Below are positions 1-25,856 of a stretch of DNA of 64,000 nt, in pieces. Origin of the DNA: Bacteroidia bacterium (GTDB lineage Bacteria; Bacteroidota; Bacteroidia; CAIKAF01). The notes below the pieces were generated by a model. The model searched no databases and was not told the origin of the DNA. It saw only the letters and a program-made list of their open reading frames with translations. The position numbers and the translations under genes are program-made. Each line of letters starts with the position of its first letter. Position 1 is the first letter of the stretch. The DNA lies in contig JACVCJ010000015.1 in assembly GCA_016742095.1 (NCBI GenBank), forward strand, positions 1-64,000. The letters are read 5' to 3'.

Positions 1-784
1 ATATTATACCTTTCTCAGTATTCATTATAAATCGCTCATATAATTCTGGTTCGTCAATTTCTATAGACAAATGTTTTATGTTCATTCTCATTTCATCATA
101 CAACATCATACTATCCTTCCCACCATATTTCATAAGCCTGTACTGCATTTCAATAAGCATATCAACAAGTCTCTGAAGCACACCTCTTGAAATATCGCTT
201 CTTCTTGGAAAACGTTTAGTATTTATTCTTGTTAGTTCCAAAACTTCTTCAAGTATCTCTCTTTCTGATCGTAATACATGGGGAGAAGATTCGACATGGC
301 TTTTTAAAATTTCATTTATTTTAGTTTCCAGTCTAGGCCACCACATTTCAAAAACATCATTTAGAACTGTCGAATCAAGTTTTGATTCTCCACCTGTATT
401 ATTTACGGTTACAAGTAGTTTTTTAAAATCTGCCTTATCAAATTTTGTAGCTTGAAAACTTGTTAAAGGGCCAGAAAAATCAGTACTATCAAAGTTAAAA
501 AGAATAGTGCACACATTTGATTTTCCGAAATTCTTTGAAAGTGCACCTGCTTCAAATAATATCCAAGGTTTATTAAGATTGTCTTTAGTCAAACAAATAA
601 TTCCAACACTTGAACTTTCAAGTTCCGAAGCAATATCTGTTGACCATCTTGTTCCTTTTTCGATATCATTGGGTGTAAAATAGGGTTTAACAAATTGCAG
701 AACTCCTGGAAGCCAAATTCTGACTTCTTCTGCCAGTTTTTTGCTTAATTCGCCACTCCAACTTATAAAAACTTTGCTTGCCAT
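1..784 (-). CDS. TIR-domain protein, C-terminus beyond window edge
   Basis: An open frame runs from an ATG at 784 off the left edge, giving 261 visible residues without a stop. The N-terminus (KVFISWSGE, then a WSTDIASELESSSVGIICLT stretch) has the TIR fold pattern. The PWILFEAGAL segment places a glutamate at residue 78 where NAD-cleaving TIR domains keep their catalytic Glu. Residues from about 170 on are helical, charged and not recognised. Known family: bacterial TIR proteins often act in anti-phage defence by NAD depletion or signalling; that role here is inference. Base composition is AT-rich, unlike the rest of the window, which suggests acquisition. No partner gene is visible because the downstream side is cut off. 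Confidence 0.85.
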   Translation of the reverse strand, partial: MASKVFISWSGELSKKLAEEVRIWLPGVLQFVKPYFTPNDIEKGTRWSTDIASELESSSVGIICLTKDNLNKPWILFEAGALSKNFGKSNVCTILFNFDSTDFSGPLTSFQATKFDKADFKKLLVTVNNTGGESKLDSTVLNDVFEMWWPRLETKINEILKSHVESSPHVLRSEREILEEVLELTRINTKRFPRRSDISRGVLQRLVDMLIEMQYRLMKYGGKDSMMLYDEMRMNIKHLSIEIDEPELYERFIMNTEKGII

Positions 785-1317
785 CTTTATTATTTGTCTT
801 TAATGATTGTTTCTTATAATACGCCAAATTAGGGACCACTGATAGATGTTTTAAACCCCATATGAATGGAAGGGCTCGCAACGCATAGGCTGCCTCCAAA
901 GCAAGCGCCCAAGTCACTATTTACTTGCAATTAAATAAATCTATTCGATTATGTTCACAGACAGTTTCTTAATATTAGGGCTAGTTTTAAGTTATCTACG
1001 AGCTTTTCGATGTCATCTTTAATAAGTCTGTGCGGTTTCAGAGATGATATAGGTTGTTTCATATACAGGGTAATTCGTATTTCATGGTAAGCGCAAGAAT
1101 GCGTACTAAGATATGTAAATCCAATACAAAAGTAAGCTATGCTGTAAAATTTTTAGAAAATCATCAGATTCCTTAGTCAGTAGGCCAAGCGTTTACTTGA
1201 CCAACGTCGAATTTTTCGGTTTACTCTCTAAACGTTTAGGTCCAGAAGCTAAATTTTTAGGTTATACTATACCTCCTAAACATTTGGTTTCCAAGGCTAA
1301 AAGCTACTGGTTCGCAG
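785..1317. other. AT-rich intergenic spacer at a composition boundary
   Basis: About 530 bases between the TIR gene and the first GC-rich gene. It contains no convincing gene. A 76-codon minus frame at 687-917 overlaps the TIR start in another phase and looks spurious. A plus-strand frame without ATG runs from about 1110 to 1340 and may be chance or a decayed remnant. Composition switches to GC-rich near 1310-1330, which marks the inner edge of the probable acquired segment. Confidence 0.6.
1228..1287. repeat. Three degenerate palindromic repeats
   Basis: CTAAACGTTTAG at 1228-1239 is a perfect 12-base palindrome. Related copies follow at 1249 (CTAAATTTTTAG) and 1276 (CTAAACATTTGG). They lie close to the composition boundary. 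Function unknown; possibly operator-like sites or chance in AT-rich DNA. Confidence 0.35.
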
Positions 1318-24078: not shown

Positions 24079-24576
24079 ATGAAATTCCGTTATGCCGGGT
24101 TACTGGCTCTTCCGTTGGTGCTGCTTCTGCAGGCCTGTCCCGTTGGCACTGATTATCCCCTGGGTACGCCCGGAAAGGAAAAAGCCGATGCGGGTCTGCT
24201 GGGTACCTGGGCTTCCATTGAAGGTACGCCCGAAGTAGTAAAAGCGGTGGTCTCCAAAAAAACGACCAACAGTTTCACGGTAACCGTGCAGGAAAAAGGC
24301 GAAATGTACTCGCTTACTTCCATGGCCTTTACGGGCTATACCACCGTGCTGGAAGGCAAGAACTTCCTGTACGTGCAGGACCCCGAAGATTCCAAGTACT
24401 ACCTGTACCACTACGAACTGATCGGTAAAAAAGGCCTGGCGCTGTACGACGTAAGTTTCCTGGAAAAGGGCATGGACGGCATCACCAGCACCGAAACGTT
24501 CCGCGAAGAGGTAAAAGCCTCTATGGCCAAGGAAGGCGGATGTTTCTCCGAGAAAAAAATGTACCAGAAACAATAA
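24079..24576 (+). CDS. Hypothetical lipoprotein
   Basis: 165 residues with a type II signal peptide; the lipobox is LLQAC, with the lipidated Cys at residue 20. The mature part reads GLLGTWASIEGTPE, like the opening of small lipocalin-type or stress lipoproteins, and contains KKTTNSFTVTVQEKGE strands. A TAAGTTTG -7 box at 24049-24056 suggests its own promoter. Function unknown. Confidence 0.75.
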   Translation: MKFRYAGLLALPLVLLLQACPVGTDYPLGTPGKEKADAGLLGTWASIEGTPEVVKAVVSKKTTNSFTVTVQEKGEMYSLTSMAFTGYTTVLEGKNFLYVQDPEDSKYYLYHYELIGKKGLALYDVSFLEKGMDGITSTETFREEVKASMAKEGGCFSEKKMYQKQ

Positions 24577-24600
24577 GGGCAGTCAAGCACTTAAAAGCAA

Positions 24601-24635
24601 AAAAAAGAGGCAGCCCTGTGGTTGCCTCTTTTTTT
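24601..24635. terminator. Bidirectional terminator between convergent genes
   Basis: A-run, then GGCAGCC-CTGT-GGTTGCC stem (one G-U pair), then T-run. It serves the lipoprotein gene (plus) and the acidic-protein gene (minus). Confidence 0.85.
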
Positions 24636-24663
24636 GTTAATGCGATGCTACAATGCGATATGA

Positions 24664-24900
24664 TCAGAAATCATCATCGTCGTCATCATAAAAGTCGTCA
24701 TCGAAATCGTCCAGATTGTCGAACTCCGGTTCAGACTCTTTTGAAGAATCTTCCTCTTCCTCGTCTGATGAATAATATGTGTCTTCCGGCTCATATTCAT
24801 CGTCATCATGGCCATCGGGCAGATTTGTATGCTTTTTTGCCATGCCGATAAATGCATTCGTGTGCATTTGTTCACTGAAATAAGAGGTGCTCTTCCTCAT
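24664..24900 (-). CDS. Small protein with a very acidic C-terminal tail
   Basis: 78 residues from ATG 24900. A short basic/neutral N-terminus (MRKSTSYFSEQMHTNAF) is followed by about 50 residues dominated by Asp and Glu, ending in a run of six Asp before the final Phe. Probably disordered. It may bind basic proteins, metals or nucleic-acid-binding surfaces as a DNA mimic; all of this is inference. The good promoter upstream and terminator downstream argue that it is a real gene. Confidence 0.65.
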   Translation of the reverse strand: MRKSTSYFSEQMHTNAFIGMAKKHTNLPDGHDDDEYEPEDTYYSSDEEEEDSSKESEPEFDNLDDFDDDFYDDDDDDF

Positions 24901-24949
24901 GATTAATCCTTTTGATGTTCTGTGTTGTGGTTTATCAATAACGTTTGTA

Positions 24950-24978
24950 CAAATGTAAGACACATTTTATTTTCACAA
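24950..24978 (-). promoter_or_regulatory. Promoter of the acidic-protein gene
   Basis: On the minus strand: TTG (24978-24976), 18 bases, TACATTTG (24957-24950). The start codon lies about 50 bases downstream. Confidence 0.6.
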
Positions 24979-25135
24979 GCAAAATATTCAGAGATTTTTT
25001 CCGTTGTCAGAATGAATTTAACAATTCATCCGTGTTTTTTTTTGCACCTTCACTATTGTTAAGAAAATGTATGCGGACGATGAAGGTATTGTTAATTCTA
25101 TGTTTCCTTCACCCGGCCCGGGAGAAAAAACAAGA

Positions 25136-25143
25136 TACCTTTG
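25136..25143 (+). promoter_or_regulatory. -7 box of the PhoB-like regulator gene
   Basis: TACCTTTG matches TAnnTTTG. It lies 26 bases before the ATG; no clear -33 box. Confidence 0.45.
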
Positions 25144-25169
25144 CGCCGTAAAATTTTTAATCACTGTTT

Positions 25170-25856
25170 ATGAGTGAAGTAGTTTCAAAAATTCTTTTAG
25201 TAGACGACGAGCCCGATATACTGGAGTTTCTCTCGTATAACCTGGCCAAGGAAGGCTATGAAGTGTTTACCGCCAACACCGGTAAAGAGGGCCTGGAAAT
25301 TGCCAAAAAAGTACGTCCCGACCTGGTGATACTGGATGTGATGATGCCCGAAATGGACGGCATTGAAACCTGCCGCGAACTACGGCAGAACAACGATCTG
25401 AAAAACGTGCTGGTGGCCTTTCTCACAGCCCGCGGCGAAGATTATTCACAGATCGCCGGTTTTGATGCCGGTGCGGACGATTATATCACCAAACCCATCA
25501 AACCCCGTGTATTCGTAAGCCGCGTAAAAGCGCTGCTGCGCCGCTCGGGTGAAGAAGTTTCGAAAGAGGACAACATGCTGTCGCTCGGCGATCTGAAGAT
25601 CGACCGCGAGAAATACCTCGTGTACTACGGCGAAACCGAAATGCAGATGCCCAAGAAAGAATTCGAGCTGTTGTACCTGCTGGCTTCCAAGCCGGGCAAG
25701 GTGTTCAACCGCGACGAGATCTTACGCAGCGTCTGGGGACAGGAAGTGGTAGTGGGCGACCGCACCATCGACGTACACATCCGTAAACTGCGCGAAAAAC
25801 TCGACGATAAGTTCATCAAGACCGTAAAAGGTGTCGGGTATAAATTTGAATTCTGA
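25170..25856 (+). CDS. OmpR/PhoB-family response regulator
   Basis: 228 residues. Receiver domain ILLVDDEPDILEFL with phospho-Asp in LVILDVMMPEMDG (~56) and the conserved Lys in ITKPIKP. Winged-helix domain ending VWGQEVVVGDRTIDVHIRKLREKL and TVKGVGYKFEF. The organisation and the next gene resemble PhoB/PhoR. It is followed 14 bases later by the sensor kinase. Confidence 0.93.
   Translation: MSEVVSKILLVDDEPDILEFLSYNLAKEGYEVFTANTGKEGLEIAKKVRPDLVILDVMMPEMDGIETCRELRQNNDLKNVLVAFLTARGEDYSQIAGFDAGADDYITKPIKPRVFVSRVKALLRRSGEEVSKEDNMLSLGDLKIDREKYLVYYGETEMQMPKKEFELLYLLASKPGKVFNRDEILRSVWGQEVVVGDRTIDVHIRKLREKLDDKFIKTVKGVGYKFEF

What the first reader, a model, noticed from the sequence alone, without database searches (positions are those of the whole stretch)
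1..1317. TIR-domain gene at an AT-rich island border
The TIR protein keeps the Glu expected for NAD cleavage and lies in DNA of very different composition from the adjoining housekeeping region. This is typical of defence-island edges. Its C-terminal half is unrecognised and its neighbours are outside the window.
Basis: partly seen in the sequence, partly recalled or inferred. Interest (0 to 1): 0.5.

Follow-up and report, generated by a model that had tools for sequence, protein, structure and literature searches.

The report
Solo TIR defence gene, cut off
This looks like a bacterial immune gene, probably one that stops viruses by destroying the cell's NAD, cut off at the end of the assembled DNA; it is a relative of a gene already tested as part of a three-gene defence, but its relatives mostly travel alone, which suggests that the three-gene version is two separate parts.

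Summary
The gene is real: window 784→2, minus strand, 261 codons, start intact, 3' end lost because window base 1 is the end of its contig. Bases 785–1317 are AT-rich without a convincing gene. The protein belongs to PADLOC's 'TIR-TM' family (E 3.8e-78), the TIR component of the 2TM-1TM-TIR locus of P2-like phage AC1, which protects E. coli when cloned whole (PMC9122126, passages). W74 and the putative catalytic E78 are identical in 24 of 24 aligned members. The model is a TIR fold plus five helices; the TIR part is conserved, the tail hypervariable.

The two membrane genes were not found in this genome assembly, nor in 35 stretches (34 genes) around non-AC1 members. Conversely, the 2TM-1TM pair occurs without the TIR. 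In 398 Pseudomonadota genomes the TIR family rang in 11 and 1TM in 9, none shared. Solitary members sit in prophages, plasmids and defence clusters of at least five phyla. Best reading: a horizontally moved, stand-alone TIR immune enzyme with a variable, possibly sensing, tail. 'Defence-island edge' cannot be shown, since the neighbours are not assembled. New member of a known kind; moderate interest.

The parts
2..784 (-). TIR gene, 261 codons from ATG at 784, 3' end lost at the contig end
   Evidence: Open frame; Pfam TIR_2; PADLOC TIR-TM PDLC03016 E 3.8e-78; PHROG 13899 E 6e-72
374..784 (-). TIR fold, residues 1–137
   Evidence: Residues 1–137 are spanned by the structural matches, Z about 10 to SPARTA, SARM1 and SpbK TIRs
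551..553 (-). Codon of E78, putative catalytic Glu
   Evidence: Identical in 24 of 24 aligned members; aligned with the Glu of plant TIR NADases (its catalytic role recalled)
215..373 (-). Helical connector, residues 138–190, with the conserved LRSEREILEEVLELTR stretch
   Evidence: Helices 138–162 and 174–189 in the model; conserved columns R172, R175, E179, E180, L182, R186 in 10 of 10; E180 and R186 in 22 of 24 each
2..214 (-). Hypervariable helical tail, residues 191–261 (incomplete)
   Evidence: 51–52% identical to the two nearest relatives where the TIR part is 86–91%; 34% to L010 and 7–23% to the other 20
785..1317 (.). AT-rich stretch between the TIR gene and the first host-like gene; no convincing ORF
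   Evidence: GC 0.358; only a 76-aa ORF overlapping the TIR gene; single copy in the genome apart from chance matches

Best explanation
A horizontally acquired, stand-alone TIR immune gene. The N-terminal TIR domain most likely cleaves NAD through E78 when the protein assembles; the conserved helical connector would carry assembly, and the fast-changing helical tail would sense a phage product. Activation would drain NAD and stop the phage together with the cell (abortive infection). Shown here: family, predicted fold, conserved residues, variable tail, foreign composition, sparse distribution, mobile and mostly solitary contexts, no 2TM or 1TM match in the assembly. Inferred: NAD cleavage, assembly, sensing by the tail, and defence by this copy.
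For: PADLOC TIR-TM family, shared with the AC1 locus that is active when cloned whole (PMC9122126, passages). E78 and W74 in 24 of 24. TIR fold in the model. 1TM and 2TM profiles ring in 1 of 21 TIR-holding genomes or records, AC1 itself; no TM match in 35 stretches around 34 non-AC1 TIR genes. TIR in 11 and 1TM in 9 of 398 genomes, none shared. TM pair without TIR around the 9 1TM loci. DNA homology with four relatives ends within 33 bases of the start codon. Prophage, plasmid and defence-cluster contexts.
Against: The 3' side is unassembled, so a downstream partner is not excluded. The only active relative was tested together with two membrane genes, so TIR-only activity is unproven. Flanks examined are often only about 1.5 kb and some are cut. 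Several weak TIR and 1TM matches may be other families. Model confidence is moderate (pLDDT 71.6, pTM 0.55). No NAD assay exists for this subfamily in what I saw.
Confidence: 0.6

Rival explanations
1. Signal-making TIR: it turns NAD into a nucleotide signal that activates a separate membrane or other effector, as proposed for AC1. In this genome the effector lies on the unassembled DNA or is a different, unrecognised protein.
For: The authors of PMC9122126 propose this for AC1 (passage); in 13 of 13 E. coli genomes with the AC1 locus all three genes are together; some members have other TM genes nearby (L172, L225).
Against: No 1TM or 2TM match in 35 stretches around 34 non-AC1 TIR genes, and neighbours vary from member to member; the 13 E. 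coli loci are at least 99% identical, so one lineage.
Confidence: 0.25
2. Not a defence gene in this host: a TIR protein with another role (for example stress or phage-phage or host interaction) kept as prophage or island cargo.
For: No activity data for this copy; PHROG 13899 is of unknown function.
Against: Family member within an active antiphage locus (PMC9122126, passages) and repeated placement beside defence genes: Thoeris pair, CD-NTase with SLATT_4, cas1-cas2/cas10.
Confidence: 0.1
3. A decayed remnant: the gene is broken just beyond the contig end.
For: The end of the frame is unseen; the upstream flank is gene-poor.
Against: 261 codons without stop or frameshift, conserved residues kept, alignment with L006 continuing to within about 15 residues of its end.
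Confidence: 0.05

Closest known systems
2TM-1TM-TIR locus of P2-like phage AC1 (PMC9122126; PADLOC 2TM-TIR, 1TM-TIR, TIR-TM)
   Same: The TIR proteins are one family: PADLOC PDLC03016 at 3.8e-78 for the window and 2.7e-118 for AC1; TIR parts 50% identical
   Different: No 2TM or 1TM gene on the 5' side, where AC1 has them, and none found in the assembly; tails 14% identical
Thoeris (ThsB TIR with ThsA)
   Same: TIR protein of antiphage context; one family member (L256) lies beside a Thoeris pair
   Different: No match to the Pfam ThsB profile at E up to 1; in L256 the Thoeris pair has its own ThsB besides this TIR
SPARTA TIR-APAZ / short Argonaute
   Same: TIR fold; SPARTA TIRs are among the top structural matches
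   Different: Full-length near relatives are 267–292 aa, solved SPARTA TIR chains 371–450 residues; no SPARTA profile in PADLOC at E up to 1
CBASS Cap12 and Pycsar PycTIR effectors (Pfam PF10137)
   Same: TIR domain; weak similarity, 16 bits
   Different: Below the curated cut-off of 24.7 bits; TIR is N-terminal with a short helical tail

Membership tests
2TM-1TM-TIR (AC1 system) | TIR protein of the PADLOC TIR-TM family | tested here: met
   E 3.8e-78, residues 4–208
2TM-1TM-TIR (AC1 system) | 2TM and 1TM genes directly upstream of the TIR gene | tested here: not met
   No such gene in 785–1317 or the first 6 kb; 1TM and 2TM profiles silent in G000, with AC1 as positive control. The assembly is 98.6% complete and the 3' side is missing
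2TM-1TM-TIR (AC1 system) | Protection against phages | not testable with these tools
   Needs expression and phage challenge
TIR NADase | TIR fold with the catalytic Glu | tested here: met
   Fold; E78 in 24 of 24, aligned to plant TIR NADase Glu (role recalled)
TIR NADase | NAD cleavage | not testable with these tools
   Needs an enzyme assay
Thoeris | ThsB-type TIR profile | tested here: not met
   PF08937 not listed at E up to 1
Thoeris | Neighbouring ThsA effector | tested here: inconclusive
   5' side has none by inspection of ORFs; 3' side unassembled; ThsA was not searched for in G000
CBASS Cap12 / Pycsar PycTIR | PF10137 TIR profile above its cut-off | tested here: not met
   16 bits against 24.7
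SPARTA | C-terminal APAZ part and Argonaute partner | tested here: inconclusive
   Near relatives too short (267–292 aa) and no PADLOC SPARTA match, but the partner side is unassembled and Argonaute was not searched for in G000

The most novel reading that the evidence does not exclude
The catalogued 2TM-1TM-TIR system is a composite of two independent phage-borne modules. The TIR is an autonomous single-gene immune sensor-enzyme with a diversifying tail, present in at least five phyla and missed by finders that demand the membrane genes; the 2TM-1TM pair is a separate phage gene pair.
Probability: 0.5. Interest if true: 0.5.

Novelty: new member of a known kind. Interest (0 to 1): 0.36.

Why it matters
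If the TIR works alone, a defence family now named only as part of a three-gene system would be wider (phages, plasmids and chromosomes of several phyla), and its variable tails would be a natural set for learning how a small TIR protein recognises phage. It would also correct the component list of a named system, because the passages I saw report a test of the three genes cloned together.

Tried and rejected
Continuation on another contig: no 16-mer of window bases 1–400 occurs in the outermost 500 bases of the 138 ends of the other 69 contigs, and no end overlap of 12–200 bases was found. Translations of 18 of the AT-rich ends, inspected by eye, do not resemble the TIR tail. A search with window 1–300 found itself and chance matches.

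Partner from the nearest provirus: the 434-aa gene next to the TIR in L006 has no match in G000 (an empty answer without a positive control), and no PADLOC, PHROG or Pfam match.

Empty site: the PhoH-like neighbour is found in 15 of 15 same-family relatives (in G010 only as a weak match). In the 14 neighbourhoods fetched no other gene of the first 16 kb of the window is kept beside it apart from two chance-level matches, and several are cut by contig ends, so no empty site could be shown and synteny says little.

Regulation: no repeats in 700–1900; sigma-70-like and terminator-like sites not clearly above shuffles; a recalled Bacteroidota promoter pattern has four matches in the window, none upstream of this gene.

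Structure: many TIRs (SPARTA, SARM1, MyD88, SpbK, plant) tie at Z 9–11, so the fold does not single out a subfamily. A profile match of the tail to a designed helical protein I take as helical look-alike.

Dropped before the counts: weak or partial TIR matches (L004, L005, L175–L180, L230–L238) and duplicates of loci already in (L001, L169, L173, L227, L255). L243, a 1TM locus by profile, gave no phmmer match to any of the nine references.

Literature: searches in the held library listed no paper that I recognised as treating stand-alone members of this family; I saw listings and abstract starts except for passages of PMC9122126, PMC9090908 (not used) and PMC11291487.

Full report
What is there. 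The window begins at base 1 of a 97,065-base contig of a 70-contig genome. An open frame runs from ATG at 784 to the contig end on the minus strand, 261 codons. GC of the gene is 0.328 and of the 533 bases upstream 0.358, against 0.523 (sd 0.046) for 254 windows of 500 bases; the first is the lowest of the 254. Upstream there is no convincing gene until a 168-aa gene at 1318–1824. AT-rich ends are not rare here: at least 14 of 138 other contig ends have GC under 0.40 in the outer 300 bases (my count from the list).

Family. Pfam TIR_2 matches at E 4.2e-8, PADLOC 'TIR-TM' PDLC03016 at 3.8e-78, PHROG 13899 at 6e-72. The same PADLOC family matches the TIR of Escherichia phage P2_AC1 at 2.7e-118, and the two genes upstream of it match '1TM-TIR' and '2TM-TIR'. 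[quoted passage not shown] The passages I saw report no single-gene deletions for this locus. A passage of PMC11291487 shows '2TM 1TM TIR' used as a system name.

Enzyme features. W74 and E78 are identical in 24 of 24 aligned members. A profile of 16 members aligns this Glu with that of plant TIR NADases at E 0.003 (its catalytic role is recalled). Models of the window protein (pLDDT 71.6, pTM 0.55) and of its nearest full-length relative L006 (pLDDT 76.7, pTM 0.53) show a TIR-like part followed by five helices; the TIR part of the first matches SPARTA, SARM1 and SpbK TIRs at Z about 10.

Tail. Against the two nearest relatives the first 155 residues are 86–91% identical and residues 191–261 only 51–52%. 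For the other 21 members the tail is 34% (L010) or 7–23% (the other 20). A short connector around R172–R186 is kept. A conserved enzyme with a fast-changing tail suggests a sensing role for the tail; that is inference.

Solitary gene. Profiles for 1TM and 2TM ring in 1 of 21 genomes or records that hold a TIR member, AC1 itself, which serves as positive control; G000 has neither. I compared all frames of 36 stretches around TIR genes (35 genes: L002 and L217 are the same gene; L028, L248 and L249 are near-identical copies in three records) with eight 1TM and 2TM proteins; the only match was AC1. Flanks differ: many stretches show about 1.5 kb each side, the window only its 5' side, and some are cut. 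In the 398 Pseudomonadota genomes (same number and same handles as far as listed) the TIR family rings in 11 (5 at E below 1e-20) and the 1TM family in 9 (2 at E below 1e-10), none in common. Independent genes would give this; an obligate unit would share genomes. The weaker matches may belong to other families. Of the nine 1TM loci, phmmer finds a 2TM match in seven, a 1TM match in eight and a TIR match in none. Three of the seven supplied reference proteins, so four are independent. By eye their neighbours look like phage genes (RusA-, terminase- and portal-like, not scanned against families). tblastn of the AC1 1TM protein finds only the two AC1 records in 50,697 phage records and nothing in 72,556 plasmid records. 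Against my reading: in E. coli the AC1 locus is whole in 13 of 13 genomes that have it (of 5,426). These are at least 99% identical, one lineage, and do not separate the readings.

Contexts of members without the TM pair: between holin and Q antiterminator in phage mEp390 and in E. coli prophages (by DNA in 25 of 5,426 genomes; contexts read in two of those and in the plasmid record of the query); next to a terminase-like gene (L257) and beside a Zot-like gene and a Thoeris pair (L256) in viral contigs; a small mobilisable Serratia plasmid and an Acidithiobacillus plasmid; between cas1-cas2 and cas10 in Gloeothece verrucosa; beside a YhcG nuclease, with a CD-NTase and SLATT_4 further on, in L010; 25–75 bases behind a parE-like gene in three roseobacters (named from the sequence). 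Records name Bacteroidota, Pseudomonadota, Bacillota, Cyanobacteriota and Deinococcota (the last covers 49% of the query). One member (G122) is fused to an N-terminal extension.

Mobility. DNA homology with L006, L009, L010 and L226 stops within 33 bases of the start codon and does not run into the 5' flank. A homologue is found in 1 of 15 held same-family relatives and in 13 of 395 genomes of the phylum draw, the window's own included. The tree puts the relative's copy (G005) in a group with AC1 (99/96) and the window's copy with a provirus and two Bacteroidales copies (100/99), then with G628 and roseobacters (97/94).

Reading. The simplest account is a horizontally moved, stand-alone TIR immune enzyme. 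As a '2TM-1TM-TIR system' it fails on the two membrane genes; it is a member of that system's TIR family. Whether it sits in a defence island stays open, because the downstream side is not assembled.

Noticed in passing
L251:4007-4849; L252:5998-6831: In Gloeothece verrucosa a TIR of this family lies between cas1-cas2 and cas10 of a type III-B CRISPR locus; in G. citriformis it lies near a RAMP-family Cas gene and transposases. A CRISPR-linked TIR effector is a lead only.
   Followed up: no
L256:4998-7412: Viral contig with a Zot-like gene where the TIR is followed by a Thoeris pair, ThsA_Macro (PF20016) and ThsB_TIR (PF08937).
   Followed up: partly
L239-L247, about 1000-2500 in each: The 2TM-1TM pair of the AC1 locus occurs without a TIR match among genes that look like phage genes; it may be an independent unit of unknown role.
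   Followed up: partly
L011:5964-8834; L013:5990-8795; L015:6011-8846: In three roseobacters the TIR gene sits 25–75 bases behind a parE-like gene in the same direction, a recurrent insertion place or an inherited one.
   Followed up: no
L027:8953-11556 (Acidithiobacillus plasmid pGT2): The same 14-kb plasmid is annotated with two further TIR-domain genes besides the family member.
   Followed up: no
L006:8971-10275: 434-aa gene behind the nearest TIR relative, without Pfam, PADLOC or PHROG match; its N-terminal part looks like a PD-(D/E)XK nuclease to my eye.
   Followed up: partly
L217:7959-12003 (same-family genome G005): The relative's TIR lies between a 654-aa ATPase-like gene and a 341-aa nuclease-like gene, a likely defence cluster (named from the sequence, not scanned).
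   Followed up: no
window 24501-25250: The only other stretch of the window with GC under 0.40 in 500-base windows (0.37–0.40); it lies between a small lipoprotein-like ORF and a response-regulator-like gene.
   Followed up: partly
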